The notes beneath the pieces were generated by a model. It worked only from the letters and a program-made list of their open reading frames with translations, was not told the origin of the DNA and ran no database searches. Positions 2,432 to 49,700 of a DNA stretch of 64,000 nt are shown in pieces. Origin of the DNA: Metabacillus litoralis (lineage in GTDB: Bacteria > Bacillota > Bacilli > Bacillales > Bacillaceae); contig NZ_VOQF01000001.1 of NCBI RefSeq assembly GCF_007994985.1, forward strand, positions 1-64,000, read 5' to 3'. A program made the translations under genes and the position numbers. Position 1 is the stretch's first letter. Every line of letters begins with the position of its first letter.

Positions 2432-2445
2432 GTTATCAGCACCAA

Positions 2446-4365: not shown

Positions 4366-4408
4366 ATTACACTCTTCTCTCTATATAATGGTTTTTATCT
4401 TAGGATTA

Positions 4409-4438
4409 ATAAGGTGTATGTCGAAACATACACCTTAT
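4409..4438 (-). terminator. Strong hairpin between the NERD helicase gene and mcrB
   Basis: A perfect 13-bp stem (4409-4421 with 4426-4438) closes a CGAA tetraloop about 75 nt after the helicase stop and 45 nt before the mcrB start. There is no long U tract on either side, so it may be an attenuator or an mRNA-stabilising hairpin rather than a classical terminator. Confidence 0.45.
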
Positions 4439-4515
4439 CAATGCTTTGTGATTTTCTTGAGTTTATCCTGGAGCTTTTTCTTAAGTAGTTTCTCAGTAAT
4501 ATTTTGTGGTTAAAA

Positions 4516-7064: not shown

Positions 7065-7098
7065 AAAAAGAGAAGAGAAATCGGAATTGCGTTTCTCT
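7065..7098 (-). terminator. Rho-independent terminator of the AspBHI-like gene
   Basis: On the minus strand AGAGAAA (7098-7092 side) pairs with TTTCTCT (7080-7074 side), followed by TCTC and a TTTTT tract ending near 7065. It lies about 40 nt after the stop at 7137 and between two convergent genes. Confidence 0.6.
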
Positions 7099-7136
7099 CC
7101 CCTTTAATCACTAAAATTGTTATAAATTCTATTTCA

Positions 7137-8306
7137 CTACCTATTAAAGTTCGCTTGAAGCCATTTAAGAACAGTTTCTTTAGATCTATATCCCGATCTT
7201 TTTAATATTGATACTATTTCAATTGCAGAAATAATAACTATTGGATGTTGATCTTCTACAATTTCTTTATAAGTGTATTCATCCACATATGAAGTAGTGA
7301 CCAATATACCAAACTGCCTGTGACGTAATCTGGATATTAATCTTGAAGTTTCTTTTACTCCAACACCAGATCCTAATGCGTATCTTTTTGCTTCTAATGC
7401 GAAATCAACTAATATGGAGCTAGACTCTAATCCAATTCGATATTTACCCACTATGTCTCTACCTCCATCTCGTGTAGCCCTTGTTACATCATAGTTGATT
7501 ATATTTGAATCCATTAATTGTGCTATTTGACCCGCACATGGCTCGAAAGCTTGACCAGTTTTAAAATAATAATAAATTGTTTCAATAATTTCTAAATCAT
7601 TTTTTGATATAGGGATTTGCTCTTGTTTTCTTCTATATACTGTTGATTTTATAGCTTTAAGCGGTTTATAGATTCCATGTATTTTCCAGTCTTTCCATAC
7701 TTTCGGTGCATGTTTACTCATTAAACCATTATCATTAAGTAAATCCTTAATCCATTCTCTAGATATAGAGCTCACATCTAAAATAGTAAAAATTGATTTA
7801 TAATTTTGAAACCTCCCCCCTTCCTTTATACTCCAAATCGCTACTAGATCCTCATTAGCTGTCATTCCTTCATACCCTGGAATAGCTAAACCTCTAAACC
7901 TTACATTTCTACCAGTTTCTTTAGAGAAAATAAAAAACGGAGGAATTTCACTTCGATCACCACTATGTAGTCGATTAAAGCATTCCCTTAGTATAATATT
8001 CCCCATTTTTTTATTTCTATGGTCATGAAGTTCTCTTCCTGGCTTTTTATTATCTCCAAAATAAGTGAATTTTCCATTTTCAATGTCAATTTCATCTATC
8101 CAATCAATATCTTCTCCTGTTGTAAAAAGTACAACATACTTCAAGTCAAAATTTTTTTTATTCCCTCTTGCTCTAAAACCTCCTGAATTTTCAACATACA
8201 TAAGCTTACTTAAAACTTCATCAGAAAGGTTACCACTACCTCCTGCAAGGTATAATTCATCTACTATCAAATCTGAATTTGGTAAATCAATAAAAGAAAC
8301 ACCCAT
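7137..8306 (-). CDS. AspBHI/MspJI-like modification-dependent restriction endonuclease
   Basis: 389 aa, close to the usual AspBHI length. The N-terminal half matches the SRA-like 5-methylcytosine-reading domain of AspBHI (DEIDIENGKFTYFGDNKKPG at 71-90, then LHDHRNKKMGNIIL). The C-terminal half is an Mrr-like nuclease: EPCAGQIAQLM, then GGRD (281-284) and EAKRYA (305-310), giving the D...E-x-K catalytic set. Members cut a fixed distance from methylated or hydroxymethylated cytosine and need no methyltransferase partner. The start ATG has an AAGGTGAG ribosome site. It stands as a single gene between two terminators. All key residues are present, so it should be active. Confidence 0.88.
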   Translation of the reverse strand: MGVSFIDLPNSDLIVDELYLAGGSGNLSDEVLSKLMYVENSGGFRARGNKKNFDLKYVVLFTTGEDIDWIDEIDIENGKFTYFGDNKKPGRELHDHRNKKMGNIILRECFNRLHSGDRSEIPPFFIFSKETGRNVRFRGLAIPGYEGMTANEDLVAIWSIKEGGRFQNYKSIFTILDVSSISREWIKDLLNDNGLMSKHAPKVWKDWKIHGIYKPLKAIKSTVYRRKQEQIPISKNDLEIIETIYYYFKTGQAFEPCAGQIAQLMDSNIINYDVTRATRDGGRDIVGKYRIGLESSSILVDFALEAKRYALGSGVGVKETSRLISRLRHRQFGILVTTSYVDEYTYKEIVEDQHPIVIISAIEIVSILKRSGYRSKETVLKWLQANFNR

Positions 8307-8425
8307 CTTTCTCTCACCTTCCTATATTCATTTATCAATATAATTATTGCAACCTGATCTAGCCTAGCAAATCGGCAGAGTATATTTAAGCACTGATACT
8401 TTCCGATAGTGCCAACCTAAATTTA

Positions 8426-8456
8426 CCAAAAAACCCAGCAATTCGAATGCTGGGTT
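8426..8456 (-). terminator. Rho-independent terminator of the helicase-nuclease operon
   Basis: The 9-bp stem AACCCAGCA (8432-8440) with TGCTGGGTT (8448-8456) closes a 7-nt loop and is followed on the minus strand by a run of six T. It lies 28 nt after the stop of the last operon gene (8484). Confidence 0.85.
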
Positions 8457-8483
8457 CACATATAAGGTCCTGTTTGAGAAATT

Positions 8484-9602
8484 TTACATGTCTTGTTGAT
8501 TTGTATAAATCACTGTTGTTAACTTCTCTCTAAAACAATTATCATTTGTATCTGCTAACAAATTATAAATACTAAAAAAACTTCCTTCTGATATTGATAT
8601 TAGATGCCTATTAGGATTTAATCCCCTAACTTTAAAAATACTTGTAGCAGATTTAACTTTTAATAAAAGAGTTCCATTTCCTAAAGTTTTAAGACTTTCA
8701 AAATGACCTCTTATATCATGATTCCAATTTAAATGGGGGCTCTGTTCTCTCTTTTCCCAATAAGAATTACAAAGTGGTCTGAATTCACAATATTGACAAT
8801 GCTCTGGAGCTGGATTAGCTAAATATTTTTGTAATTCAATGAAATTATTATTCTCCAAAATTAATTCATTTATTTCATAAAACATTTCTTTTGCTTTATT
8901 CAATACCTTTATACATTCTTCTTTAGAGTAATAGATTGAATGTATAACCCCATTTAGACCGTAAACTTTAAGAGCAGATGGCCACTCATTTAAATTTTCA
9001 TAAAGTAATGCTGCATAAAGTAGCATTTGATATTTATATTCTTCTTTAATCTCATGAGTATCATTATTAAAGATTGACCCAGTCTTATAGTCAATTATTT
9101 CAATACCTGTATCAGTGAATGCTAGTTTGTCAATATATCCCCCAACAATACTGTCACCAGTCTCAAACCATCTTTCAAGCCCCGGGAATGTTTTATTGTT
9201 AGATTTATACTTTCCACCAACAACTTCTATCAATTCAGATGCTTCTTTAAATAATAACCTTTTTTTAAGCTCATACCCTCTTAGAGACTTATTAAACGGA
9301 ACTAAGTATTCCTCCCTTGTCCCCAACATTTGTCTTTCTAATACAGTTATTGAGGATAACCATTCATTATCGAAGTCTTCTTTAGTTATATTACCTCTCC
9401 CAACATTCTGAAGAAAGTTATGTGCTGTAATACCAAAGTACATATTTGGAGAGGAAGGTAGTAATTTTTCATTATTATTTGATATTAATACTTCCCTTAA
9501 TCTACAGCAATTCATTCTAAAAAAACGACTTGGAGAGACCCTTCTTAGTGGAGCAATGTTTACTGATGATGGCAAATTACCACCAGACTTGTTCATCCTC
9601 AT
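8484..9602 (-). CDS. PD-(D/E)XK nuclease of the RecB/AddB/Cas4 type with probable Fe-S cluster
   Basis: 372 aa. The nuclease core has H61 in GITAHNFLQ, D158 in GGYIDKLAF and D171-Y-K173 in IEIIDYKTG, then Q192 in YKYQMLLYA, the RecB-family order. Three cysteines near the end (269, 272, 278 in HCQYCEFRPLC) together with C32 or C33 before the core form the usual four-cysteine [4Fe-4S] arrangement of AddB and Cas4 nucleases. The start ATG (9602) has AGGAGG at 8-nt spacing and overlaps the helicase gene by 26 nt, so the two are translationally coupled and probably work as one machine. It is the last gene of the operon. What DNA it cuts is unknown. Confidence 0.88.
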   Translation of the reverse strand: MRMNKSGGNLPSSVNIAPLRRVSPSRFFRMNCCRLREVLISNNNEKLLPSSPNMYFGITAHNFLQNVGRGNITKEDFDNEWLSSITVLERQMLGTREEYLVPFNKSLRGYELKKRLLFKEASELIEVVGGKYKSNNKTFPGLERWFETGDSIVGGYIDKLAFTDTGIEIIDYKTGSIFNNDTHEIKEEYKYQMLLYAALLYENLNEWPSALKVYGLNGVIHSIYYSKEECIKVLNKAKEMFYEINELILENNNFIELQKYLANPAPEHCQYCEFRPLCNSYWEKREQSPHLNWNHDIRGHFESLKTLGNGTLLLKVKSATSIFKVRGLNPNRHLISISEGSFFSIYNLLADTNDNCFREKLTTVIYTNQQDM

Positions 9603-12600
9603 CCACTGTTCCTCCTAAATTTTCATGGCACCAACCCGGACGTCTTATAAGATTAAAAGTATCAATAAAATCTAAAGAATCCAAATTTGCACCGGTAGCA
9701 ACAACTGCATCAGCAAGCACACCATTAGGATTTGAATAGTCCCATAACGGATGTGTAAAAATTATTTTTCGGTTTCCTGCTTTTACTCCAGGAATGCCAG
9801 CCCACTTGGTTGGCTCATAGTTGAAAAAGGAAGAGAATCGTTCAGCTAAAACTTCAGCTAGTTGTAGCCACTCCTTTAACTCAGGTGTAGAAAAATCTCC
9901 ATTTATTCCACATTGGTATGCCGAATCAAACATACTCCTTAAATAAGCTAGCCCTAAACGCCAATCTAATAAACCATGATACTGCATATTTCTATAATTC
10001 ATTAGACAACCATAGCAAGCAGTACTACAATTATGCTTTTCACTAATTAAATAATTTATAAAAGACTGATTTCCTGTTTGGGAAACAACCTCTTTTAGTA
10101 CATCTGTCCATTTATTTTCAAGCCAACGTACAAAACCTGCCCCATTTGGTAAGCGGTCACTCAAAATAATTTCACCAACGAAACTTCCATCTCCAATATC
10201 CGATCTTAAACATTGGGAAATTTCAATTTCATCTGCATCTATATCTAGTTTTTCGGCAACTACTGAGCGGAGTAGAAACGCTGCAGAATATACGGCTGCT
10301 TTTGCAGTTACATTAATTGGGTCAAAATTTAGTCCATTATTATTAATAATTGGTTTAATGCGCAATAAGTCAGTTGTTTTTGAGCTTGCAATTCCTATCT
10401 CTTCATTAGTAATAAAGTCTTGATCACTAACATATTTATAGTCTTCTAGTACCCATTGCCCTTTAAAGGTAAAATATTTCTGATCCCTACCACTAGTTGT
10501 TTTTGTACGATTAGTTGTTATTAAACCACCCTTAAATAAACTCCTACCATTATCATTAATTCTCCATACACGTCCATCACTACTCAAGCTTATTTGAACG
10601 TTATTACCTTTTACTTTATTAAAATTAACTTGTTTTCCCTCCGCAATACTAGAAGGGGCACCTGAAATGACCTTATCTTCTTCTCTAGCGTCACTTCCCT
10701 TAGAAAAGTCGGATCTAAATGCTTGAGGTATAGCTACGTTATAGACTCTAAATTCTTTACCTTTACTCATACCACAATTAGAACATTCTTCTAAGTCTTG
10801 ATCTACCTTCATATATCCGCAATTTGAACAGTGAGCGATTTGGTATCTACCTTGTTGTGGCAATGCATCTTCATCCGTTGTTTGCCATTTCCCTTCTCTT
10901 TTTAAGAGGGGGGCTGTAAATCCAATTGCAGTATGAATTGCTTTATCCTTTGTTTTCTGAGCACCAGGTGCAAATTCACTAATTCCCATTTCTATATCAC
11001 GGTCAATTGTTTGTGGATTATTAGAGCCATCAAATCCATGATAAAACAATCTTGTTCGCGTCGGCATACCAAACATTGGTAACTTAGCACCCTCCGCAAG
11101 GCATTCAGCCAAGCCTTTTCCTACTAGTTCAGGGTTAGCTGAACATTCATCAATGTCATTTATTAAGTCATTTTGAATATAATTTAAATAATTTTTAACA
11201 CTGTTTTCTCCAGCTTGCCAAGGAGGAAGAAGACAGGTAATTATATCTTTTATTGCTTTTGAATTTGATAGAAGCCAGTCATAAATCTTATTTTTATTAT
11301 TACCCCAATCAGATTTGTATCCAAATTCCCCATGACTATCAGGAGGATCACTAGGACCATCCCACCATTGAACACCAATTTCTTTAAAAGCTTTCCTTAA
11401 ACACTCTTTAACTAGAAGTCTCTTAATAATAGGAGGCTGTTCAATTGTTACAAAAGGTACAGGTGGTGGATCACCAGTAATAGCAGAAGGATTCTCAAAA
11501 TAATGGTCGTCATGGCTTCTTCCTCCACGGCAAAGTGTCAAAACATAAGAAAAAGCTTGTCCACGTCTCCCTGCACGCCCTACTCGCTGTTGATAATTAA
11601 ATCGCATCGGAGGCATATTTGCCAACATCACGGCTTGTAGACTACCTATATCCACACCTACTTCCATTGTCGTCGTTACATTAAGAATATCAATCTCGTC
11701 TACTTCCTTAATATTGTTATCGCCCTCGGTATCCAGTAATATCCCTCGGAATAAACGCTGTCGAGCCCCTTGATTATCAGTTTGAGCTGTTAGCTCTTCA
11801 GAATGTAATCGAATAGGCACTCTTTCATCAGTTGCCATGAATGCTAAATAGTTTCGACTCATTAAATCACTACATTCTCCATTCGGTTGCTCTTCCAGTT
11901 CCGAATTACAATTAGTACAAATACCAGCAGACTCATGAAGGTGAGGTCTTTTACATTTTGAACATTCCCAGTAAGGGTCTTCTTCCGCTGCTACCTTAAT
12001 TTGAAGTTGATCGGTAGAAATAATAACACCAGTATGACCAGAATTTTTTAATATGTTGAATACTTTTTCACCAACTACTTGATAGTCATTTGTAGGAATC
12101 CTTAATTTTTCACATACATTATTTATATAGTGCTTGATTGAACTTTTTGAATTTCTATATTCTACCCAGTCATCCAAAGGATAATCCGATCCATCATGTC
12201 GGTAAAGATCACCTAGTATTCTAATTGTTGAATTACACATTTGCTTTAAAATTTCTTGGTCAATTTTTAGAGTGATTGATGTAGTTTCGATTAAGGTCTT
12301 ATCAAAACAAATCATAGGGTATCCTAAACCAGATGATTCAAAACCAAAATATAATCTGCTAAAAAGTAGATCACATAATTCTTTACGAATTTTATCACGA
12401 ATTTGATTTTTAAATCTATCGGTATCAGGCGGAAGGTCACTTAACCAAGTTTGCTTTTTAAAATCAAATAGGTCAGTCCAGCGATGTTCTTGATTTCCCC
12501 ACCTAAATGATTGATTTTTTATATCGTTTCCAGCAGGATTAACCCCTAATCCTATTAACCTAGAAACTATTCTTCCACAATCATCGGCAGATGAGGGATA

Positions 12601-15282
12601 TATTAACTCTTTACAAGAAACAACCAATGTATTTTTCTTGTTTCGGATAACTTCTAACTCTTTTATTGCTTCATCATAAAATCTTCTAAAAGCAGGAGGT
12701 GGTTCATTTTTAGTTACTTCTAATAATTCACTTATTTTTTGTTGAGCCATTGGATAAGCACTAATGTATCTTTTAGATTCAGTTGATAAATCATTTCCTT
12801 CTTCAAGATCTTCTAAAAGTTGTGATTCTCCTATTGTCGCTAAATGGAGTTCATCAACTACTACTTCTCTAAAAAGATCCTTATAGTGATTACGTTCTAC
12901 CCCATTAGACATTTGTGCTGCATCTTCCCTACTATCCGAAAAGACTACTAACTTTTTATCACTTCTTTCTGAAAGTTGATAAAATAGTTCCTTCGATAAG
13001 ATTTGGCTGACTTTTGAGAAACCAGTACGAAAACCTCGTATTGGGCTAGTTAAATATTTTCTATTTGAATAATCCGCGTTACAACAAGGACAAATAGATG
13101 GTAATGATTTAAAATCCTCAGTTTCATCACTATCAATAGTATATCTATAGCCTTTAATATATGTTGAAGGATTGTCTTCTGAGTATTCGTGTGTAAGTTC
13201 TATTGTACCAGTTAAAGAACTAAGACTTGCAGGTTCCCATTCACCTTTTGCCTTGCCCCACTCTTTTTTTCTTTTTAATTGGTTCCACGTACGCGCTTCC
13301 TTGTGTAACTCTTCACCATCTTCAACTGGCCAGAAAATTGCATATTCTTCATAATTTCTTTGTTCAACCATATTTTTCTTATTTCGGTCTGGAATGCCTT
13401 CTATATCAGGAGAAGTTATTAACATTTCATCTTTGCCATTTTGGAGCTTCAAGCGGTTTCCTCCATAGAATACTGTCCCACATTGTTCACAATATAAGAG
13501 TTCTAAAATTCTACTTCCATTTTCATCAATGATGCTTGGTTTGGAGTATATCTTTCCAACAGGGCTCATTATCCCACTTTTTTCTTTATAAGTGGATGCC
13601 CATAAACCTTCTATATTACGGAAAAACCAATGGAATCGGAAAGAAGGTAAACTACTGACCATATGGGAGGTATCACATATAGTTCGAGCCTTAAATAATC
13701 CACTCACTGCCTTTCTTCTTACAACTTCATTGATATTTGCCCCAAAGAGACTTTTTGTAAAGTCATCTATGGAAACAGCTCGTATCCTATCACCAATTTT
13801 ACAAGCATTTAACATTGTATTTGCTAACTTTAAACGATTAGACTCTAAAACTTCCTTTAACCCTTTAACCCCAGTGAGTTTACTGTCTAATCTCGATAAT
13901 AGGTTATTTATTGCTATTTCTTCATTTTCTTCATATTCGTCATTAAACTTAATAAAAGGTTCGTATGGAAGGAAGGTATTACTTTTTATAGGTAATTGCT
14001 CAGGTGTACCAGTAATAATCTCAAATTTATCTCCCTCAACTCCAAAAAAGTCTTTTAGAAATTTCCGGCTGTCTTCATCCTCAGGTTCCAACGATGCACT
14101 GGATGCTAAAATCCTTAACTGCGGATGAGAGGGATATAAGTCTAGACGATTTAATAAAAGTTTTAAGAGGTAAGAAACTTCCGCTCCCGATGTTCCTCTA
14201 TATAAGTGTAATTCATCAATTATTAAGTGGAAAACGTTTTCTTCACTTTCTTTAAGCCATTTCTTTGTCTCCTCGAAAATTCCACTGTCAACTTCCCGCA
14301 TCATCATAATACTTAACATTGAATTATTTGTAATAAGTATATCTGGTGGAAAATCCTGCATATCCCAACGAGAACGCATTTCAGCTCCATTCATATTTTG
14401 GAAAAAGAACGGAATCTCAGGGTTATTAGTTTCTACAGAATAGTTTAAAGCAGCATTACTGGTTTCATCCATTTCTTTCATTCTTTTGGCTAGCTCTTCT
14501 AATTTCTTTCTATTTGGAATGCCTGTTTTTGTATATTCATGTCCCGCTACTGGACTCATGCCATTATATCTACCAAAATAAATTTTATTACCTTTAAGGT
14601 GTGAGTCATAAAATAATTTTGCTTGTTTAGAGTCTAATGCTTTTCTTAATCGAGTTAGTTGATCTTCTACCAATGCATTCATCGGATATAAAATCAGAGC
14701 ACGTACACCAGATTTTCTCTTTTCATGACTTCTTTGTGGCACACGATATGACCTGTTCAATGGACTACTTTTCCCAACCGAATCACATCGTTTTTGCCAG
14801 TCATTATTTTTCCACCAATCATTTACATGCGGTTCAGGAGAGTCAGCCGCCTCCCACTTTTTCGCTTCTTTTGCCAAATACGCAAACAATGGTAGTAGAA
14901 AAGATTCTGTCTTCCCTGATCCTGTCCCTGATGTTATTACACAATTTTTTGAAGATAGGGCTTCTTTTAGCATCTGAGATTGATGGGTATATAAAGGGAG
15001 TTCAGGATTAAAAAGACCGCAACTAACCAATTCTTTAAATAACCCTATTTCTTTAATAGTTAAGGAAGGTAGATCATTTTCCGATAGATCTTTTATCTTC
15101 ATTTTTGAACTTTTATATCTAGGCAAGGGCTCAATCCACGGATCTTGTGCAAGAACTCCGGGACTTAATAGTAATTGTTCTCTTTCCTTCTCGAGGGAAG
15201 GGTATCTAGTTCCAAACGCGGTTTTTACATATCTAATAAAATTTTGCTGTATTTCCTCAAAAGCTTCTATTGGACTACCCAT
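9577..15282 (-). CDS. Giant DEAD/DEAH helicase with DUF1998-like C-terminus (DruE-like)
   Basis: 1901 aa. Superfamily II motor: Walker A SGTGSGKT at 118-125, box II DELH at 356-359, and in the second RecA fold TTMEVGVDIGSLQAVMLANMPP (quoted in parts) followed by QRVGRAGRRGQ. Several CxxC zinc-ribbon pairs occur (CEQCG, CPCC, CSKC...CTNC, CSNCG twice), and the C-terminus has a DUF1998-like cysteine motif (CSTACYGCLMNYRNMQYHG). The family of very long DUF1998 helicases includes DruE of Druantia defence systems. The gene follows the 326-aa gene by 14 nt and overlaps the nuclease gene by 26 nt. ATG 15282 has AGGAGG. Role: probably an ATP-driven translocase for foreign-DNA processing; subtype assignment is not possible by eye. 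Confidence 0.88.
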   Translation of the reverse strand: MGSPIEAFEEIQQNFIRYVKTAFGTRYPSLEKEREQLLLSPGVLAQDPWIEPLPRYKSSKMKIKDLSENDLPSLTIKEIGLFKELVSCGLFNPELPLYTHQSQMLKEALSSKNCVITSGTGSGKTESFLLPLFAYLAKEAKKWEAADSPEPHVNDWWKNNDWQKRCDSVGKSSPLNRSYRVPQRSHEKRKSGVRALILYPMNALVEDQLTRLRKALDSKQAKLFYDSHLKGNKIYFGRYNGMSPVAGHEYTKTGIPNRKKLEELAKRMKEMDETSNAALNYSVETNNPEIPFFFQNMNGAEMRSRWDMQDFPPDILITNNSMLSIMMMREVDSGIFEETKKWLKESEENVFHLIIDELHLYRGTSGAEVSYLLKLLLNRLDLYPSHPQLRILASSASLEPEDEDSRKFLKDFFGVEGDKFEIITGTPEQLPIKSNTFLPYEPFIKFNDEYEENEEIAINNLLSRLDSKLTGVKGLKEVLESNRLKLANTMLNACKIGDRIRAVSIDDFTKSLFGANINEVVRRKAVSGLFKARTICDTSHMVSSLPSFRFHWFFRNIEGLWASTYKEKSGIMSPVGKIYSKPSIIDENGSRILELLYCEQCGTVFYGGNRLKLQNGKDEMLITSPDIEGIPDRNKKNMVEQRNYEEYAIFWPVEDGEELHKEARTWNQLKRKKEWGKAKGEWEPASLSSLTGTIELTHEYSEDNPSTYIKGYRYTIDSDETEDFKSLPSICPCCNADYSNRKYLTSPIRGFRTGFSKVSQILSKELFYQLSERSDKKLVVFSDSREDAAQMSNGVERNHYKDLFREVVVDELHLATIGESQLLEDLEEGNDLSTESKRYISAYPMAQQKISELLEVTKNEPPPAFRRFYDEAIKELEVIRNKKNTLVVSCKELIYPSSADDCGRIVSRLIGLGVNPAGNDIKNQSFRWGNQEHRWTDLFDFKKQTWLSDLPPDTDRFKNQIRDKIRKELCDLLFSRLYFGFESSGLGYPMICFDKTLIETTSITLKIDQEILKQMCNSTIRILGDLYRHDGSDYPLDDWVEYRNSKSSIKHYINNVCEKLRIPTNDYQVVGEKVFNILKNSGHTGVIISTDQLQIKVAAEEDPYWECSKCKRPHLHESAGICTNCNSELEEQPNGECSDLMSRNYLAFMATDERVPIRLHSEELTAQTDNQGARQRLFRGILLDTEGDNNIKEVDEIDILNVTTTMEVGVDIGSLQAVMLANMPPMRFNYQQRVGRAGRRGQAFSYVLTLCRGGRSHDDHYFENPSAITGDPPPVPFVTIEQPPIIKRLLVKECLRKAFKEIGVQWWDGPSDPPDSHGEFGYKSDWGNNKNKIYDWLLSNSKAIKDIITCLLPPWQAGENSVKNYLNYIQNDLINDIDECSANPELVGKGLAECLAEGAKLPMFGMPTRTRLFYHGFDGSNNPQTIDRDIEMGISEFAPGAQKTKDKAIHTAIGFTAPLLKREGKWQTTDEDALPQQGRYQIAHCSNCGYMKVDQDLEECSNCGMSKGKEFRVYNVAIPQAFRSDFSKGSDAREEDKVISGAPSSIAEGKQVNFNKVKGNNVQISLSSDGRVWRINDNGRSLFKGGLITTNRTKTTSGRDQKYFTFKGQWVLEDYKYVSDQDFITNEEIGIASSKTTDLLRIKPIINNNGLNFDPINVTAKAAVYSAAFLLRSVVAEKLDIDADEIEISQCLRSDIGDGSFVGEIILSDRLPNGAGFVRWLENKWTDVLKEVVSQTGNQSFINYLISEKHNCSTACYGCLMNYRNMQYHGLLDWRLGLAYLRSMFDSAYQCGINGDFSTPELKEWLQLAEVLAERFSSFFNYEPTKWAGIPGVKAGNRKIIFTHPLWDYSNPNGVLADAVVATGANLDSLDFIDTFNLIRRPGWCHENLGGTVDEDEQVWW

Positions 15283-15296
15283 TTATATTCCTCCTA

Positions 15297-16277
15297 CTAT
15301 AAATTAGCCTCTAATAAATTCAACCCTAATTTTCTTGATATTTCTAAAGCTATTAAATTATTAACACCTTCATAAACAGTTATATTTGTATTTCTAGGTA
15401 AATAACCTAATTGTTTGTGAAGTTCTTTTTTTCGGGGGAGCGACCCAGTACAGAGAGAAACTGCCCTAGCTAAATCTTTAGGTAATGGTATTGTTGAGGG
15501 AATGGCAAATCTCTGTTTTATTTGGTCAAATAAAAGTATGTCAGTTTTGTATCTACTTAAGATGACATACCTCCCCCACCCTCTATCAATTTTTGCGGCA
15601 GCATTTCCATTCCAAATCCATGTGTATTGTTGCTGTGAAATAGGATTTTTATATTTAACTAATTTAATTTCATCTGTACATACAAATTGTCTAAAATACA
15701 AATTTTCATGGCAGAATACTTCTTTTTTCCAATTAGGCTCAAATTGTTCACTATACACAAGAGATTCATAAATATCATTTACACTAGGTGCTGTAATTGA
15801 AAGGTTCCAAGAAGCAGGTGTTTTTAAATCGCCCTCAATTCCTATCCTTTCAGTAACTTGTTTTAAAATTTGAGTACTTTTAGCTTCAATACAAATAGTC
15901 TTGGGAAAAAGGGGATTTTTAGCTGAGAGCTGATCTGAAAAAATAATTCTTACTTTATCATAATTTTTATTTACTAATTTCGTTATACGTTTTAGCATTA
16001 GTTCAGACCTTCCACCTGCTAATACTATTCTAGGTAATCCCCTTCTAGGTAATAATGCAAATGAAGGTGGGCAAATATATATTATTCTATTTTCATAGTC
16101 TACTTCACAATGTCCTAATGCCTCCAAATCTCTCATTATATCGTAGTAATTATATAAGAGACGTTGTTGTTCATCATCATTAAAGTAATGTTTCAGAAGA
16201 GTGTCACAGACATCCCTAAACTTTTCAAACTTAATACTACCTAGTACACTTAAAACAGTAAGAATATCGTCAAACAC
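15297..16277 (-). CDS. Operon protein of unknown function, winged-helix-like N-terminus
   Basis: 326 aa, no signal peptide or membrane segment. Residues 1-70 look like a winged helix-turn-helix (short helices, then HCEVDYENRIIYICPP as a hairpin). A conserved-looking motif, LLPRRGLPRIVLAGGR, follows. The remainder is mixed alpha/beta with a terminal RAVSLCTGSLPRK patch. The gene overlaps the upstream 678-aa gene by 8 nt and precedes the giant helicase by 14 nt, so it is almost surely a subunit of the same system. By position it could correspond to one of the small unknown Druantia proteins, for example DruG of type II, but I cannot confirm homology. No catalytic motif was recognised. Confidence 0.75.
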   Translation of the reverse strand: MFDDILTVLSVLGSIKFEKFRDVCDTLLKHYFNDDEQQRLLYNYYDIMRDLEALGHCEVDYENRIIYICPPSFALLPRRGLPRIVLAGGRSELMLKRITKLVNKNYDKVRIIFSDQLSAKNPLFPKTICIEAKSTQILKQVTERIGIEGDLKTPASWNLSITAPSVNDIYESLVYSEQFEPNWKKEVFCHENLYFRQFVCTDEIKLVKYKNPISQQQYTWIWNGNAAAKIDRGWGRYVILSRYKTDILLFDQIKQRFAIPSTIPLPKDLARAVSLCTGSLPRKKELHKQLGYLPRNTNITVYEGVNNLIALEISRKLGLNLLEANL

Positions 16278-18306
16278 GTTTTGCCACCTCTAAGTAATTT
16301 TCCCATAATTCGTGCAATGGGGGGAAATCAGGTTTTTCAATTGCTTTTCTCATTTTACACATTACTGTTTTCCAAAATCGTAAATTTTCTTGATCAATAA
16401 CCTCTTTTTGTATTTTACACTGTGTCAACTTTTTTGTAGCTATGAAGTGTACTTTCCATTTTCTCTTTCTGACTTTCGAAATTGCCCAAATGGGCTCAAA
16501 TTCTATTTTCACTTCTGTTTTACCTTGCCAATGGTATATTTGACCAACTTGTTGTCCAATGAACATGATCTCATTTGATAAAAATGTTGGTAACGGAAAT
16601 TGCTTAAAAAGTGGTGAATTTTCCGTATTATAAACATTTACACCTATATTCATTGGTTCCTCACTCTCTTTATTATAAAGTCCTTTTGAATCTATAAAAC
16701 TTTTTTTATTAAGTATAGAAATTTTAGAATTAGTAATTTTAAAATTTATTCTTCTAATTACATTTCCTTGCTCTAATACTTTAACTCTCAGTGTTTCATC
16801 TAATGGAAGATTTTCTTTTACAAGTTCCCAACGCTCAGATTCCTCGTTATAAGGAAGTGGCTCATCATTTAATAAAACAACTTCATTTCCTTTATAGTTC
16901 TCAAGAATAATTTCAGGAGGAGCTGCTCTTAAAAAAGTGTTCCCCTTTCCTAAGCGAAGACCATTTACAAGTCGAATTTTAAGGTCACTAGCTATAGTTA
17001 ATTCCTTAACACCATTATAAAACTCTTTCGGTTTACTAACATGAAAAAGGGACCAACCATTTGGAACACCAGCATAATTTATTTCTCCAAAAGACTCACA
17101 TTTGTTTTTACCCCATTCTATAATCTTATCTCTGTATGAGTTATCGCATAGTAATATAAATCTAGAACCCTTTTCAATACGTGCAGTTTCAATTAAATTG
17201 GGTAGACCATATTTCTGCCCTTCAACAAAAATTCTGATAGATGTACCTCTTAATGATGATTTTAACTTATTATCTAAATCTACTATTTCTTCTCCATTTA
17301 GCCAATTAAAATTGGTGGCATCAACAACCAAACCATCTTTATTCTTAAGTTCTGTAGACCAATTATTAATACTTCGCCTACAATACAAAAGACTTTCTAC
17401 TTCACTCCTTTGAAATTTAAAAAAATCACTTGGGAATTCTTTCTGTGTGTTAATGCGTATACTAAAAGATGCCTTTTGTGTTATTTTATTTAAATTCAAA
17501 CATATCCGTATCCTGGATGTAACGAATGAATCTGACACCATATAATCCTCTGGAAAAAAACCGTCCCACTCATTTAATTCGTCATTCACTAATTCAAATA
17601 GTGCTTTTTGCAGATGTTCATTTTCATCTTCTCCATTTAGTAGTCTTTGAGTTTTATTACTCAGGACTTCTTTACCATGTTCCTTTAACATTATGTGAAT
17701 TGTATCATTATCAGGAGAGTCTGAAGAAATGATACCAGCTTTAGTAAATATTAAAGGTAAATCTTTTCTTTCCTTGCTAGATATAATTGTCTGTGAGAGG
17801 GGTAGCCCTACGTGTCTCCATCTACCTCTTATCCTTACCCTGAAACGACCAAACTCCTCAAGTCTATCTTCAACACTCCACTCTTCCAAGTCCCTCCACA
17901 AACTAATCATCCTATCAAAATAGGGATACTGTCCCGATACCTCATCTTCTCCTAATAATGCTCGCAACTTAGGGTAGTATGCAATTGTAGAAAAATGATC
18001 ATCTTCTACATAACCGGCTAATACAAAAAGAGCAAGATATGCTATATATGGTGGATATCTTAAGTTTCTAGATCTCCAATTCTTATATGTCTGATATGCC
18101 TTACGACAAACACCATGATTACTATACGCATTAACCCATGGAGGACCCTCAATAACTGATGAAATAAAACCATTCAAGTTTTCATTAATTTTACTTCCTA
18201 TTTCGTTAATGAAATTTTCATCTACAAATAAAAGAACTTCCCGTCCAGCCATTGCCTCATTAAAAAATTGTTTAGCAATTAGACTGTTCCATTTCATATA
18301 TGTCAT
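16270..18306 (-). CDS. First gene of the helicase operon, large protein of unknown function
   Basis: About 678 aa from ATG 18306, chosen because GGGGGA lies 5 nt upstream; an in-frame ATG at 18345 lacks a ribosome site. The N-terminal third contains RYPPYIAYLALFVLAGY, then YYPKLRALLGEDE and an RMISLWRDLEEWS run with HVGLPLSQ, which looks like a conserved alpha-helical domain recurring beside large helicases. The C-terminal half is beta-rich. I see no nuclease, methylase, NTPase or membrane signature. Overlap of 8 nt with the next gene and the lead position suggest a sensor or DNA-recognition subunit (inference); DruF of type II Druantia is a candidate counterpart by order and size only. Confidence 0.75.
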   Translation of the reverse strand: MTYMKWNSLIAKQFFNEAMAGREVLLFVDENFINEIGSKINENLNGFISSVIEGPPWVNAYSNHGVCRKAYQTYKNWRSRNLRYPPYIAYLALFVLAGYVEDDHFSTIAYYPKLRALLGEDEVSGQYPYFDRMISLWRDLEEWSVEDRLEEFGRFRVRIRGRWRHVGLPLSQTIISSKERKDLPLIFTKAGIISSDSPDNDTIHIMLKEHGKEVLSNKTQRLLNGEDENEHLQKALFELVNDELNEWDGFFPEDYMVSDSFVTSRIRICLNLNKITQKASFSIRINTQKEFPSDFFKFQRSEVESLLYCRRSINNWSTELKNKDGLVVDATNFNWLNGEEIVDLDNKLKSSLRGTSIRIFVEGQKYGLPNLIETARIEKGSRFILLCDNSYRDKIIEWGKNKCESFGEINYAGVPNGWSLFHVSKPKEFYNGVKELTIASDLKIRLVNGLRLGKGNTFLRAAPPEIILENYKGNEVVLLNDEPLPYNEESERWELVKENLPLDETLRVKVLEQGNVIRRINFKITNSKISILNKKSFIDSKGLYNKESEEPMNIGVNVYNTENSPLFKQFPLPTFLSNEIMFIGQQVGQIYHWQGKTEVKIEFEPIWAISKVRKRKWKVHFIATKKLTQCKIQKEVIDQENLRFWKTVMCKMRKAIEKPDFPPLHELWENYLEVAKRV

Positions 18307-18345
18307 TTTTTCCCCCAAACCTAAAATCATCAAATTTAAAATCAC

Positions 18346-19319
18346 TCAATAAGAACTACTTTACCATTTTTAACCTATAATCAGAATCTTTTTTCAATTT
18401 TTACTCAAGGAAATTTTCTATTATATAATTTTATCATTTTTTCTAAAAGGTATGAAAGAACTAACCATGACTAAGTAATGAAATTTATGTAAATTGACTA
18501 GATTCACATATAAATAAGGGATAAAATGAGATAAAATAACTGGTATATTTTATTATTTCTCTAAAGAAGTATAAAAAAAAAGGGTACAGAGGTTAGATTT
18601 AGATAGGAAGCAATAAATAAAAGAAGTAGAAAATTAAAGTACTACCGACCTCTTTTCTTTTATTAACTTTAAACATCATTACGGATTAATGTAATCAATG
18701 ATTGTTTTGTTTAATTAGACACCCATCTATCCAATTAGTAATAAAGACAGGTTCAATGATTAACAACATAAAATTATTAAGGTGTAACTCTATTTCTTTC
18801 ATAATTTACTCGGTTATACTTAAAATAACATATCAAATCACAAGAAATAGCACCCTTTTTCATACGCTGAAATAGTCAGTGTAAAGTTTTTTGGTGCTAT
18901 TTCCAAAGCTATATCCAGCTTATTTCCTTGTGAAATGTTGAAATATAAACGTAAAAAGGGTAAATAGGTCTCATAGATGAGAAAATCCATATATTAAAGG
19001 AATTGATTTAAATTTAGAAAACAATTCAGATATATTCGTTAGTTACTTTATTTTTATAAAGGTAGAAATTGAAACAATTAGTAATAGCTAATATATTATA
19101 GTAGTAAATATGTTAAAATTTTCTTAAAAATGAACTATTGTTGAGTGCTAAAAATGAGTAGCGACGATAGAGTTAAAATTATTAATATACATAATAATAA
19201 AGAACTAATGACACTTATTTTAACAAATATAGTTCAACATTCTTATTAAACATAAAAGGTATTATATCTTCAAATTTTTGGTTGTAATTAGTAGCATGTA
19301 TTCTTTATAACAAAAAGAA
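18346..19319. other. Gene-poor 1-kb AT-rich spacer
   Basis: It holds the promoter side of the helicase operon and an inverted-repeat cluster at 18838-18933. A 31-codon ORF at 19154-19249 (starts MSSDDRVKII) has only a weak GAGTG upstream and is unproven. Nothing else was recognised. Confidence 0.4.
18838..18933. repeat. Nested inverted repeats, possible structured RNA or remnant
   Basis: GAAATAGCACC at 18844-18854 pairs perfectly with 18893-18903, and an outer TCACAAG (18838-18844) pairs with CTTGTGA (18927-18933), whose neighbouring bases again read AAATA/TATTT. This suggests alternative hairpins sharing one arm. No U tract follows and no gene is adjacent; it might be a small RNA or the remnant of a miniature element. 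Confidence 0.35.
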
Positions 19320-22130: not shown

Positions 22131-23855
22131 TCATATATTTAACTTTACTTCGCAAGATAATTTTAGAGAAGACCACCCTTTATCATGACCAGAACTAAAT
22201 TTAACCCTGAGCGATAATTCCTCATTATTTTCATTCCATGTAAGTGTAGTTTGTATAAGAGATGGAAATTTCTCTAATACATTAACTTTTGTATTTACAT
22301 TTCCATGCTCCAAAATCACACTTTCGTTTTGGCTATAAAATGAAATAATTAGAGCCGACTCACCTAATAAATTTCTAATGCCTTGTTTTAATTCATGTTG
22401 CTGTGCTGACTTTAACTTCTTACCTATTTCTTCTGTTACTTTAATTAAACATTGTTGATGATCCAATGTATTATTAGAAAATAGCTCCTTTGTTTCCGCT
22501 ATTGTATTTTCCATAGATCCTATCCCAAAGTACTGATCACTTAGAATAGTTCCTACCCCTGGATTTTTAGTTGTTAATTTCTTTACCTTTTTAGAGTATG
22601 CCTTTAAAGAAAACTTCTCTTCATACATTTTTCCATGTACCAATAACACTAGTTTTAAATCACTAGTATCAAGGCGATTTGTCATATAACTATCTGGAAC
22701 AAGTTGTATACTATCAATGGTGTATGACTTATATTTATCTGTTAGATAGGAATTCAATTTCATAATAGTATTTTGATTTGTATTCATCATATCTTTAATC
22801 GTAGAAAAAGGAATTAAATCAGAATATTTATTAAAAATAGTCTTATATTCTTCATTATCTACCTGCTTTACAGATAAATTGGAGTTTATTATTTCATAAT
22901 AAACTAGAGCCTCGTTACACTTTCCGATTGCATTGCTAATATTTCCATCTTTAGTTTGCTTATGAATTTTTATAAGTTTTTCAAATTCATAAAGATCCTT
23001 TTTATTTCTATCTTCAATTTGCTTATCTTCATTAAAAATTTCCTCATAACTAGTTGCAAGCTTGATAGAGGAAGTTGGTCCACTTTCAAATTTAAAACGA
23101 ATCAATAATGAGGTATTTCCTTTACTTAAACCAATTGAGTTTCTACCTTTTTTATAAATATTGATAGTTGAACTATTATCATATTGAAAGTTCAACGTTT
23201 CAACACACAAACACTCGTTCTTATTATTGTATCGTGTTATAATATTAGTTGAATCTAGTAGCAATAAATCTTTAAATGCTTTATTCAAATCGTCTAGCCG
23301 TTCATTATACTGTTCTCGCAAAAGTGTAAAACAGTGTTCTCGTATTTTAAATAAAAATCCTTGACGAATTGGTTCAATTTCTTCTGAAAAATGACTATAG
23401 GATCGTTCAATTGATTTCTTAAGTTCAGTTTTATTTTTGTATAGAACTTCATTTTCATTTTTAGAATCAATTTCCCTTAGATAACTTAGATATTCAATCT
23501 CAAATAATTGGTTGAATTTTAGTTGTATATCATCAGCATGAAAGTACTTTTTCAAAAAACTTAGAGCACCTAGATTTTTGGGTTGGATTTTCCCTTTTCC
23601 TTTGATTAAGAAAAGATTAATGTCAACCTTTGAACTACTATCTAGCGTTATTGTAATATCAGCATGTTTATCTGGTGTGCTTTTTTCAAATTTGGACTCT
23701 ATATCTATTATATTAGGATATTCTCCTAATATATAATTTACCGTGTTTAACGTAGTTTCTTCTTTGGAATATAAAGTTTCACCTTCAATTACCCGCTTTA
23801 TATTCTTTACTACATCTAAGACATGTCCATCCCCGATTTTCTTAGAGCGACTCAT
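22131..23855 (-). CDS. Presumed type II restriction endonuclease partner of the C5 methyltransferase
   Basis: 574 aa, not matched to a named family by eye. It is divergent from the methyltransferase with 125 nt between starts, the classic restriction-modification layout. In the N-terminal part HADITITL (D about residue 67) is followed by VDINLFLIKGKGKIQPKNLGA (split here as INLFLI and KGKGKIQPKN), which may be the D...x-K core of a PD-(D/E)XK nuclease. The long middle and C-terminal parts are charged and helical. ATG 23855 has GGAGGAG at good spacing. Function is inferred mostly from context; alternatively it is a methyltransferase-associated DNA-binding protein. Confidence 0.65.
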   Translation of the reverse strand: MSRSKKIGDGHVLDVVKNIKRVIEGETLYSKEETTLNTVNYILGEYPNIIDIESKFEKSTPDKHADITITLDSSSKVDINLFLIKGKGKIQPKNLGALSFLKKYFHADDIQLKFNQLFEIEYLSYLREIDSKNENEVLYKNKTELKKSIERSYSHFSEEIEPIRQGFLFKIREHCFTLLREQYNERLDDLNKAFKDLLLLDSTNIITRYNNKNECLCVETLNFQYDNSSTINIYKKGRNSIGLSKGNTSLLIRFKFESGPTSSIKLATSYEEIFNEDKQIEDRNKKDLYEFEKLIKIHKQTKDGNISNAIGKCNEALVYYEIINSNLSVKQVDNEEYKTIFNKYSDLIPFSTIKDMMNTNQNTIMKLNSYLTDKYKSYTIDSIQLVPDSYMTNRLDTSDLKLVLLVHGKMYEEKFSLKAYSKKVKKLTTKNPGVGTILSDQYFGIGSMENTIAETKELFSNNTLDHQQCLIKVTEEIGKKLKSAQQHELKQGIRNLLGESALIISFYSQNESVILEHGNVNTKVNVLEKFPSLIQTTLTWNENNEELSLRVKFSSGHDKGWSSLKLSCEVKLNI

Positions 23856-23980
23856 GTAGGTAACTCCTCCAATCCTTTTAAATATTTTAACTCAACGATT
23901 GGAAATAATAAACAAGGAAGATTAACATGGCCTTTTTTGTCGTTTAATGATAAAATATATAACTATTAGAGGTGATATTC

Positions 23981-25252
23981 TTGAAAATTGAAGAACGTGG
24001 GCGAGCTAAATACAAACCCGCAAAGGATTATGATATTAAAGATGTACAAAATCTTCTACTAGAAAAAATTACTGAGGAGCAATTACGTTTACAATCGGTA
24101 AATGATGCGGAAGATTTCTCATCTATTGAATTCAATTCAGATAAATTAAATGTTGTAAGTTTATTCTCAGGATGCGGTGGTCTTGATCTAGGTACTGAGT
24201 TAGCCGGACTTGATGCGATGTTTGGAAAAGAAAAAGTAGATTTCCATTATTCAAATAAAGAATCTTACGATAAAATTCGCAATGATAGTATTTTTCATAC
24301 AATTTGTACTATTGATATGTTTAAAGAAGCAAATCAAACCTACAAGAAAAACTTCCCTTCATCAGTATGTCAAATTGAAAAAGATATCCGTAAAATTAAG
24401 AACTTTCCAATGAGTGATATGGTAATAGGCGGATTTCCTTGTCCTGGGTTTAGTGAGGCTGGACCTAGATTAATTGATGATGAAAGGAATTTTTTATATA
24501 TTCATTTTATAAGATGCTTACTTCAAACTAAACCTTTCTTTTTTGTAGCAGAAAACGTCAAAGGACTATTAACGCTTGGAAAAGGAGAAGTAGCAAAACA
24601 AATCATACAAGACTTTGAATCTGCAGGTTACAAAGTAAAGTTTCAACTAGTTAATGCAGTCGATTATGGTGCACCACAAAACCGTGAACGTGTTTTTATA
24701 GTAGGCGTAAGAAACGATATAAAATACAAATATGAGTTTCCACATCCAACACATGGTGTTAAAAACGACCTACTACCATATAAAACATTAAAAGACTCTA
24801 TATATGATTTAATTGATGATCCAGGAGAATGGTATGAAGGTGGTTTTTCCTCTATGTACCTATCTAGAAATAGAAAAAAGACATGGGAAGACCCAAGTTT
24901 TACTATACAAGCTTCTGGAAGACAAGCACCACTCCATCCCTCTGGTGAATCAATGAAAAAGCTCGATAAAGATTTATGGGAATTACCTGGTGGTCCTGAA
25001 AAAAATAGACGCTTATCATCTAAAGAAATTGCCAGAATCCAGACTTTTCCTGATTGGTTTGTGTTTTCAAAAGGTTCAGAAACATCAGGAAGTAAAAATA
25101 GTCAAATCGATAAAGTATATAAACAAATCGGAAATGCAGTTCCAGTAGAATTAGCCCGTGTAATGATTATGCCAATCGCAGAATGGAGTTCTGCTAACAT
25201 GAACTACCTATTCGAAAAAAGAGAGACAACACACCAACTGGTTCTACTTTAA
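23981..25252 (+). CDS. DNA (cytosine-5-)-methyltransferase
   Basis: About 423 aa from TTG 23981, which has AGAGGTG at 6-nt spacing; the GTG at 23972 lies within that ribosome site. All C5 methyltransferase motifs are present in order: I VSLFSGCGGLDLG, IV GGFPCPGFSEAG with catalytic Cys about 154, VI AENV, VIII QNRERVFIVG, and X QIGNAVP near the end. The extra 40 residues between motifs I and II and a short recognition segment (LSRNRKKTWEDPSFTIQASG) before motif IX are notable. It methylates cytosine at C5 in an unknown target and should protect against the neighbouring endonuclease. It looks intact. Confidence 0.95.
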   Translation: MKIEERGRAKYKPAKDYDIKDVQNLLLEKITEEQLRLQSVNDAEDFSSIEFNSDKLNVVSLFSGCGGLDLGTELAGLDAMFGKEKVDFHYSNKESYDKIRNDSIFHTICTIDMFKEANQTYKKNFPSSVCQIEKDIRKIKNFPMSDMVIGGFPCPGFSEAGPRLIDDERNFLYIHFIRCLLQTKPFFFVAENVKGLLTLGKGEVAKQIIQDFESAGYKVKFQLVNAVDYGAPQNRERVFIVGVRNDIKYKYEFPHPTHGVKNDLLPYKTLKDSIYDLIDDPGEWYEGGFSSMYLSRNRKKTWEDPSFTIQASGRQAPLHPSGESMKKLDKDLWELPGGPEKNRRLSSKEIARIQTFPDWFVFSKGSETSGSKNSQIDKVYKQIGNAVPVELARVMIMPIAEWSSANMNYLFEKRETTHQLVLL

Positions 25253-27775: not shown

Positions 27776-27918
27776 AGAAAATGCATACACTAAAAAAGAC
27801 TGTTCGGTGCTTGAACACCAAACAGTCACACAATAGCTAGGTTCCCTCTAAGGGGATCAGCGTCATGGTATATAACTCACCCTATTTCGCTGCTGGGCTC
27901 AAGGGTGGGTTATTTTTT
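27776..27918 (+). ncRNA. Antisense antitoxin RNA of type I cassette A
   Basis: A sigma-A-like promoter, TTTTCA (27741-27746), 17-nt spacer and TATAAT (27764-27769), conserved in all seven cassettes, points to a start near 27776. The RNA ends at the hairpin 27874-27883 with 27902-27911 followed by T6. A T-G pair in that stem becomes an A-C mismatch on the other strand, so the hairpin belongs to the + strand RNA. It overlaps the 3' untranslated part and last codons of the toxin mRNA, the txpA/RatA and bsrG/SR4 arrangement. Confidence 0.85.
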
Positions 27919-27996
27919 GTCTCTAAAAGATAAGATTGACAACACCAAACTTGCAAATGCTATCATAAGCATTAACGTTTGAAATACTGTCATCAT
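27910..27996 (-). CDS. Type I holin-like toxin peptide, cassette A
   Basis: 28 aa: MMTVFQTLMLMIAFASL, then VLSILSFRDKK. A single hydrophobic membrane span with a basic tail, typical of the small holin-like toxins related to BsrE/TxpA. GGGGGTGAT precedes the ATG pair, and that ribosome site can pair with an upstream CCCC (28016-28020 region) in a leader hairpin, as expected for translational silencing. The mRNA likely starts near 28056 (TATAAT on the minus strand at 28068-28063) and ends at the hairpin 27827-27798 with T6, whose G-U pair only forms in the minus-strand RNA. C-terminus differs from the other copies (ILSF for IISY). Confidence 0.82.
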   Translation of the reverse strand: MMTVFQTLMLMIAFASLVLSILSFRDKK

Positions 27997-49181: not shown

Positions 49182-49199
49182 TATTAACTTATCTACCTA

Positions 49200-49400: not shown

Positions 49401-49401
49401 A

Positions 49402-49665: not shown

Positions 49666-49700
49666 TTTTCAATCAACTCATCTTTGGTTATAATAAAAGT

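What the first reader, a model, noticed from the sequence alone, without database searches (positions are those of the whole stretch)
8484..18306. Candidate multi-gene anti-phage system: two unknown proteins, DruE-like giant helicase and Fe-S nuclease
Four genes are coupled by 8-nt overlap, 14-nt gap and 26-nt overlap and end at one terminator. The helicase (1901 aa, DELH box, DUF1998-like end) resembles Druantia DruE. The nuclease gene is not a standard Druantia component I know of, while the two leading proteins could correspond to DruF/DruG by order and size, with the C5 methyltransferase 5.7 kb away recalling type II DruM. It may be a Druantia variant with an added AddB/Cas4-like nuclease, or an unnamed system. 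The 678-aa protein's N-terminal motif set should be a searchable marker.
Basis: partly seen in the sequence, partly recalled or inferred. Interest (0 to 1): 0.85.

Follow-up and report, generated by a model that had tools for sequence, protein, structure and literature searches.

The report
Four-gene Druantia IV antiviral helicase-nuclease operon
This is an intact copy of a known but hardly studied bacterial anti-virus gene set (Druantia type IV) that carries its own DNA-cutting enzyme, and relatives elsewhere suggest that it works together with a DNA-marking enzyme which labels the cell's own DNA as self.

Summary
The four genes, their sizes, the 8-nt overlap, 14-nt gap, 26-nt overlap and the terminator are real. 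It is not an unnamed system. The proteins match PADLOC's Druantia models: DruF (1064 bits), DruL4 (453) and DruE (2000) end to end, and DruK (76) more weakly. DruE+DruF+DruL defines Druantia type IV (PMC8565338). So the 326-aa protein is DruL, not DruG. The nuclease already has a PADLOC-DB name, though none of the seven Druantia papers found counts the word DruK.

New here, over 87 related loci: DruK directly follows DruE in 42 of 75 loci with enough sequence; 11 catalytic and Fe-S residues are invariant in all 42 aligned copies. A cytosine-5 methyltransferase directly follows in 38 of 75. In loci of 15 kb or more it is present in 41 of 42 with DruK and 20 of 29 without. DruF and DruL are one fused protein in 31 of 87. 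The window genome has a single such methyltransferase, 5.7 kb away.

Most likely working: helicase DruE feeds separate nuclease DruK, and methylation spares self DNA. The methylation step is inference; a tree-aware test of DruK against the methyltransferase was uninformative.

The parts
16270..18306 (-). druF (678 aa), Druantia type II/IV core protein of unknown function
   Evidence: PADLOC PDLC00021 1063.7 bits and PDLC00054 (DruF4) 928.3 bits, full length. Model pLDDT 81; no PDB fold with E <= 0.001.
15297..16277 (-). druL (326 aa), the protein that defines Druantia type IV; residues 5-68 look like a winged helix
   Evidence: PADLOC PDLC00056 453.1 bits, full length. Model pLDDT 93, no PDB fold with E <= 0.001. 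The winged-helix reading is my inference from the predicted element order.
9577..15282 (-). druE (1901 aa), YprA-family helicase with zinc-binding end and a C-terminal domain without a conserved nuclease motif
   Evidence: PADLOC PDLC00015 2000.3 and PDLC00051 (DruE4) 1987.8 bits. Solved homologue 9wae_A, E 2.3e-243. H1844, W1847 and R1880 in 84 of 84 sequences with that region.
8484..9602 (-). druK (372 aa), PD-(D/E)XK Fe-S nuclease of RecB/AddB/Cas4 type
   Evidence: PADLOC DruK PDLC00060 76.3 bits; Pfam PDDEXK_1 52.8 bits. C33, H61, E143, D158, D171, K173, Q192, Y196, C269, C272, C278 invariant in 42 of 42 aligned rows.
8428..8457 (-). intrinsic terminator that ends the F-L-E-K operon
   Evidence: Hairpin plus T run; compensatory pair change in L011; not listed by the pattern scan.
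7137..8306 (-). AspBHI-like 5-methylcytosine-dependent restriction enzyme (by homology), in the same shared block after the terminator
   Evidence: Pfam RE_AspBHI_N 214.4 bits and Mrr_cat. 95.4% identical gene in L011 at the same place.
7092..18542 (.). block shared with Alkalihalobacillus bogoriensis at 94.9% DNA identity (mREase-K-E-L-F)
   Evidence: Single blastn match of 11460 columns, the only one at E <= 1e-10 between the window and that locus.
23972..25252 (+). C5 cytosine methyltransferase, the only one found in the genome; candidate self-marking partner
   Evidence: DruM2 PDLC00031 389.7 bits, MTase_II PDLC03378 321.1 bits. Single PF00145 match in 4.88 Mb.
22131..23855 (-). type II restriction enzyme divergent from the methyltransferase (separate R-M pair)
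   Evidence: PADLOC REase_II PDLC03444 435.1 bits.

Best explanation
Identity (shown): an intact Druantia type IV operon, druF-druL-druE-druK. Working (mostly inferred): DruE, a YprA-family DNA helicase whose own C-terminal domain keeps no conserved nuclease motif, loads on invading DNA through DruF and DruL, which work as one unit and are fused in many relatives. It moves along or unwinds that DNA and delivers it to DruK, a separate Fe-S PD-(D/E)XK nuclease, which cuts it. A cytosine-5 methyltransferase marks the cell's own DNA so that the machine spares it. In many relatives that gene sits in the operon directly after druK. Here the only candidate is the methyltransferase of the neighbouring restriction-modification pair.
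For: Core identity; definition in PMC8565338. DruK: 11 catalytic/Fe-S positions invariant in 42 of 42 aligned rows; profile hits DNA2 and UvrD-type helicase-nucleases in the PDB; E-K junctions within 60 nt in 42 of 44; dN/dS 0.22 against L011. DruK specificity: in 398 genomes of the class, the two with a DruL match are the two whose DruK match (4 genomes in all) is not part of a 977-986-aa frame. DruE end: H1844 and W1847 in 84 of 84, while a loose D-x8-30-[DE]xK pattern is not conserved (24 of 85), in line with PMC12458937, which calls the C-terminal Vsr domain of type I and II DruE inactivated. F-L unit: 31 of 87 loci encode one fused protein. Methyltransferase: directly downstream in 38 of 75; present in 41 of 42 DruK loci of 15 kb or more. 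In 20 of 20 searched DruK-bearing genomes there is at least one C5 methyltransferase, and in 11 of these the single one is the one in the locus; likewise in the window genome and G289. Base rate of any C5 methyltransferase in the class: 207 of 398.
Against: Independent-pair test of DruK against the downstream methyltransferase on the DruE tree: of 9 pairs about 2 go the same way, 1 the other way, 6 do not differ; with upstream methyltransferases counted, about 2, 0 and 7. Neither is significant. None of the 13 cyanobacterial loci with enough downstream sequence has DruK, so the core can exist without it. Methyltransferase linkage is not special to DruK: L039, L047 and L051 keep it without druK, and in four DruK-less genomes (L046, L047, L086, L089) the single C5 methyltransferase is also the one in the locus. 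The window methyltransferase has its own restriction enzyme. L015, a 1.6-Mb metagenome bin, has F-L-E and no C5 methyltransferase match. The window's own DruE end does contain the loose D-x8-30-[DE]xK pattern, and the Vsr nature of that end is not supported by sequence here (hhalign probability 1%). DruF and DruL have no recognisable fold. I saw no phage data for type IV.
Confidence: 0.55

Rival explanations
1. Methylation plays no part. Like Druantia III, the complex senses phage replication intermediates (ssDNA-containing or recombining DNA) and DruE with DruK destroys them; the C5 methyltransferase is a neighbour from restriction-modification modules in the same islands.
For: Abstract of PMC13192584 gives this kind of mechanism for type III. 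PADLOC defined type IV without a methyltransferase. In the window and L011 the methyltransferase stands beside two different restriction enzymes. Tree test uninformative.
Against: The methyltransferase lies within 60 nt of druK in 27 of the 32 loci where it follows druK. The single C5 methyltransferase of the genome lies in the Druantia locus in 17 of 39 genomes searched: the 37 plus the window genome and G289.
Confidence: 0.3
2. DruK is an auxiliary end-processing or repair nuclease; the defensive cutting is done by DruE itself or by host nucleases (AddAB/RecBCD).
For: None of 13 cyanobacterial loci with enough sequence has DruK. Type III is sensitive to loss of RecD (abstract). The window's DruE end holds a loose D-x8-30-[DE]xK pattern.
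Against: That pattern is in only 24 of 85 DruE sequences. DruK is translationally coupled and its active site is invariant.
Confidence: 0.2
3. DruK merely hitch-hikes in the operon and the operon without it is the whole system.
For: PADLOC's published definition is E+F+L only. DruK is in pieces in Paenibacillus sp. yr247, L013.
Against: 42 of 75 loci in many phyla, conserved position, purifying selection.
Confidence: 0.08
4. The system attacks methylated DNA (type IV-like restriction) rather than unmethylated DNA.
For: The same shared block carries an AspBHI-like enzyme, and an AspBHI_N domain alone lies between druK and the methyltransferase in L038 and L041.
Against: Genomes with DruK carry their own C5 methyltransferase in 20 of 20 cases searched.
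Confidence: 0.05

Closest known systems
Druantia type IV (PADLOC; 2021, PMC8565338)
   Same: DruE, DruF and DruL present, full length and in operon; no DruG found.
   Different: The published text that I saw (five passages and section 14; not the supplement or figure) does not mention DruK and says DruM is lacking. Here DruK is present, and a DruM2-like methyltransferase lies 5.7 kb away in an R-M pair.
Druantia type II (DruM-DruF-DruG-DruE)
   Same: Best DruE and DruF scores are to DruE2/DruF2 models, above the type IV models; cytosine methyltransferase nearby.
   Different: No DruG match among the eight proteins scanned (lists of three of them capped at 25 rows). The control type II locus L010 does show DruG2, at 415 bits.
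Druantia type III (DruH-DruE)
   Same: Same helicase family (DruE3 model 340.6 bits). Abstract of PMC13192584 describes DruE acting on ssDNA-containing intermediates.
   Different: No DruH model among the hits shown. The type III helicase carries its own PLD nuclease (PMC12458937, section 4), while here nuclease DruK is a separate gene.
DISARM and MrfAB
   Same: Works like: a YprA-family helicase with a nuclease in trans; DISARM also has a methyltransferase, in some forms a cytosine one (drmMII; passage of PMC10273834).
   Different: The best DrmA model scores only 39.7 bits on DruE. The zinc end is not a separate gene, and the nuclease is Fe-S PD-(D/E)XK, not PLD or 3'-5' exonuclease (those traits from PMC12458937, section 4).
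Cas4 / AddB / DNA2 nuclease domains
   Same: Four Fe-S cysteines, H, D, DxK and QxxxY motifs (motif names recalled); PDB profile hits DNA2 at 1.3e-7.
   Different: Stand-alone protein coupled to DruE; Pfam Cas4 model below its cut-off (15.4 against 22.7 bits).

Membership tests
Druantia type IV | DruE helicase | tested here: met
   PDLC00051 DruE4 1987.8 bits, residues 3-1892
Druantia type IV | DruF | tested here: met
   PDLC00054 DruF4 928.3 bits over 1-678 of the profile
Druantia type IV | DruL | tested here: met
   PDLC00056 453.1 bits
Druantia type IV | no DruG | tested here: met
   No DruG model among the hits of the eight scanned proteins; for three of them only the best 25 hits are shown
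Druantia type IV | no DruM | tested here: inconclusive
   A methyltransferase with best model DruM2 lies 5.7 kb away beside a restriction enzyme; relatives often have one in the operon
Druantia type IV | protects against phage | not testable with these tools
Druantia type II | DruG present | tested here: not met
   and, as positive control
Druantia type II | DruM in the operon | tested here: not met
   Methyltransferase is 5.7 kb away, opposite strand
Druantia type III | DruH present | tested here: not met
   No DruH model among the hits shown for the eight scanned proteins
DISARM | DrmA, separate DrmB, PLD nuclease DrmC | tested here: not met
   DrmA 39.7 bits against DruE 2000 bits; MZB zinc match lies within DruE; nuclease is PD-(D/E)XK
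Fe-S PD-(D/E)XK nuclease (Cas4/AddB type), for DruK | four cysteines plus H, D, DxK, QxxxY | tested here: met
   Invariant in 42 of 42 aligned rows
Fe-S PD-(D/E)XK nuclease (Cas4/AddB type), for DruK | Fe-S cluster and DNA cleavage | not testable with these tools
   Needs purified protein

The most novel reading that the evidence does not exclude
DruK-bearing Druantia IV is a distinct restriction-modification-like class. A fused or paired DruF-DruL sensor reads the absence of cytosine-5 methylation, DruE is a motor with a silenced nuclease end, and DruK is the nuclease in trans. The required methyltransferase may be encoded in the operon, divergently, or borrowed from a neighbouring R-M pair, as in this window. 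Most cyanobacterial copies do without both DruK and a dedicated enzyme and could rely on the many C5 methyltransferases of their genomes.
Probability: 0.3. Interest if true: 0.65.

Novelty: new member of a known kind. Interest (0 to 1): 0.42.

Why it matters
Druantia type IV was reported in 11 phyla (PMC8565338, passage), yet the searches turned up no paper on how it works. The census here gives a parts list: the F-L-E core, the coupled nuclease DruK, and a cytosine methyltransferase that accompanies most copies. It also turns the self/non-self question into one direct test. If the neighbouring R-M methyltransferase is what keeps this operon harmless, its loss should kill the cell only when F-L-E-K is intact. 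If not, type IV may work like type III on phage replication intermediates.

Tried and rejected
Rejected: DruG for the 326-aa protein. Rejected: an unnamed system. Rejected: chance clustering; F and L, split or fused, were both found beside DruE in 79 of 87 loci. A claim that DruK and the methyltransferase are gained and lost together was tested and is not supported beyond shared ancestry. A sequence link of the DruE end to Vsr nucleases came out weak (hhalign probability 1%), though the two align at the VHP-LW / VHGCFW motif. On checking, the loose D-x8-30-[DE]xK pattern does occur in 24 of 85 DruE ends, the window's among them, so I say that no such motif is conserved, not that none is there. 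Fold searches of DruL and DruF gave nothing at E <= 0.001. Scans of phages with DruL and of viral contigs with DruE found no relative. A search for papers naming the solved DruE homologue by five of its seven entry codes found none. A search for the word DruK alone gave 387 papers; the 15 listed are unrelated (mostly a Dutch or Bhutanese word) and the rest were not looked at, so the statement on DruK in print rests.

Limits: the 80 genome loci are the best 80 of 454 DruE relatives, so they lean to the closest kin. Gene calls there are longest open frames of 80 aa or more, not curated genes. Loci L001-L003 were left out of the counts. The DruK alignment holds the window and 41 of the 46 loci with a DruK match; left out were L013 (pieces), L016 (cut by the contig end), L029 (96-aa frame), L062 (opposite strand) and L064 (near-copy of L063). 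L013 is counted as DruK-bearing and among the 20 genomes. The DruE tree (FastTree) has 84 of 85 rows; L075 was dropped. Of the 16 cyanobacterial loci, three (L023, L024, L087) hold under 0.9 kb downstream, and two (L006, L032) do have a methyltransferase. Only 38 of the 80 genome loci were handed to the genome-wide methyltransferase search and 37 genomes were searched. The 38 handed to the AspBHI search included five loci already known to carry it, so 5 of 38 is not a rate. Two of the larger ORF families are, judged from the one printed example of each, frames antisense to druE; I ignored them.
Full report
Observation. The four minus-strand genes are exactly as described: a 678-aa protein (ATG at 18306), a 326-aa protein overlapping it by 8 nt, a 1901-aa helicase 14 nt further, and a 372-aa nuclease overlapping the helicase by 26 nt. 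A hairpin with a T run follows at 8457-8428, and L011 keeps it with a compensatory pair change. The automatic scan did not list it.

Identity. PADLOC-DB models match F, L and E end to end: DruF2 PDLC00021 1063.7 bits and DruF4 PDLC00054 928.3; DruL4 PDLC00056 453.1; DruE2 PDLC00015 2000.3 and DruE4 PDLC00051 1987.8. The nuclease matches DruK more weakly (PDLC00060 76.3). The PADLOC paper (PMC8565338; five passages and section 14 seen) defines Druantia type IV as DruE+DruF with DruL, lacking the DruM and DruG of type II. The window meets the DruE, DruF and DruL features; the DruM feature is open. DruK is not in what I saw of that paper, and the whole-word search counted zero occurrences of DruK in all seven papers that hold at least two of its five terms.

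Anatomy. DruE has GTGSGKT, DELH and NYQQRVGRAGRRG motifs and several conserved cysteines. A solved homologue of 1970 aa (9wae_A) matches residues 3-1882 at E 2.3e-243; no paper in the library names five of its entry codes. In the C-terminal domain H1844, W1847 and R1880 are in 84 of 84 sequences and P1845 in 83, but a D-x8-30-[DE]xK pattern is in only 24 of 85, the window included, so no PD-(D/E)XK motif is conserved. The YprA preprint (PMC12458937; abstract, section 4 parts 1-2 of 3, and legends read) calls the C-terminal domain of type I and II DruE an inactivated Vsr nuclease. My own profile comparison with 30 Vsr-like proteins from the loci aligns at the matching motif but is not significant.

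DruK keeps C33, H61, E143, D158, D171, K173, Q192, Y196, C269, C272 and C278 in 42 of 42 aligned rows, the signature of Fe-S RecB/AddB/Cas4-type nucleases (motif names recalled). Its profile finds DNA2 and UvrD-type helicase-nucleases in the PDB. DruL folds confidently (pLDDT 93) and DruF moderately (81), but neither has a PDB match at E <= 0.001. The order H-E-H-H-H-E-E in DruL residues 5-68 suggests a winged helix (inference).

Relatives. A genome-collection scan found 454 DruE relatives and kept the best 80. With seven plasmid loci this makes 87. DruF and DruL are separate in 48 and fused in 31; only one is found in 5 and neither in 3. DruK directly follows DruE in 42 of 75 loci with at least 2.6 kb held downstream, and 42 of 44 E-K junctions lie within 60 nt. 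A C5 methyltransferase directly follows in 38 of 75; 32 have both. In the 71 loci of 15 kb or more, a C5 methyltransferase is present in 41 of 42 with DruK and 20 of 29 without. No cyanobacterial locus of 16 shows DruK; 13 of them have at least 1.9 kb downstream. In the 398 genomes sampled from the window's class, DruL occurs in 2. The DruK profile at E <= 1e-20 occurs in 4: the same two, plus two matches inside frames of 977 and 986 aa.

Methyltransferase. The window genome has one C5 methyltransferase match, at 23972-25252. The other class member with DruL, G289, also has just one; it ends about 1.4 kb before a fused DruF-DruL, DruE, DruK row. Of 37 further genomes searched, 36 have at least one. 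All 20 with DruK do, and in 11 of those the only one is the one in the locus (coordinates compared). The same holds for four genomes without DruK (L046, L047, L086, L089), so the link is to the system rather than to DruK alone. The seven cyanobacterial genomes searched have 7-11 matches each (some are pieces of one gene). The exception is L015, a 1.6-Mb metagenome bin with F-L-E and no match. In the class, 207 of 398 genomes have any. Against a tight DruK-methyltransferase pairing, the tree-aware pair test is uninformative, and L039, L047 and L051 keep the methyltransferase without DruK.

The block. Window 7092-18542 is 94.9% identical to one contig of Alkalihalobacillus bogoriensis, the only blastn match between the window and that locus. 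The block therefore looks transferable (inference) and includes the AspBHI-like gene after the terminator. dN/dS is 0.34, 0.23, 0.16, 0.22 and 0.15 for F, L, E, K and the AspBHI-like gene. Both genomes have a DruM2-type methyltransferase nearby (52% identical to each other) beside unlike restriction enzymes.

Mechanism. Shown: operon structure, homology, a complete DruK active site, coupling, F-L fusion and methyltransferase linkage. Inferred: DruE moves DNA to DruK; F-L is the sensor or loader; methylation spares self. The type III work (abstracts only: PMC13192584, PMC13316683) supports a helicase acting on phage DNA, without mention of methylation there, so the sparing step may be wrong.

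Verdict. A new, intact member of a known kind. Its interest lies in an uncharacterised subtype with a clear, testable division of labour.

Noticed in passing
L038 17189-17743; L041 17111-17671: A short AspBHI N-terminal (5mC-reading by homology) domain protein lies between druK and the methyltransferase, overlapping druK, in two Bacteroidota; the L038 one was checked as PF18062 at 150.9 bits. The L041 match is reported with one stop inside.
   Followed up: partly
window 7137-8306; L011, L020, L077, L043: Full-length AspBHI-like enzymes recur beside Druantia IV. In the class the family is rare (11 of 398 genomes, window included), and in at least four of those (G387, G054, G336, G212) it lies within about 1.4 kb of a C5 methyltransferase match, from a cut list: a 5mC-dependent nuclease next to a 5mC writer.
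   Followed up: partly
30 of the 87 loci: A Vsr-type mismatch endonuclease family (one member, L020, checked by Pfam) recurs near these systems, within 500 nt of a C5 methyltransferase in 16 of 30. In the type II plasmid locus L010 it starts at the end of druE.
   Followed up: partly
14 of the 87 loci, e.g. L012 626-1801: A recurring family of about 390 aa that looks like a tyrosine recombinase/integrase by eye; not checked against Pfam.
   Followed up: no
window 1124-6423: McrBC-like pair (McrC-like 1124-2431, AAA ATPase 2446-4365) and a NERD-UvrD helicase gene (4516-6423) next to the block: a defence island.
   Followed up: no
window 49003-55522: Five to six repeats, four of them with BsrG-type RNA matches, stand on both sides of a DUF2357/PDDEXK_7 plus AAA gene pair (50811-54528); a further BsrG match is at 27802-28057.
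   Followed up: partly
window 19708-20721: HNH endonuclease gene between the Druantia operon and the R-M pair; its best PADLOC matches are PtuB and Cas9.
   Followed up: no
L013 15582-16629; L007 5952-14808: druK is in pieces in Paenibacillus sp. yr247, and druF/druE are in pieces on a Hymenobacter plasmid, so decayed copies seem to exist.
   Followed up: no
window 58471-60853: Three consecutive open frames of exactly 215 aa on the minus strand, possibly paralogues.
   Followed up: no
window 63266-63350: c-di-GMP-I riboswitch, 82.5 bits.
   Followed up: no
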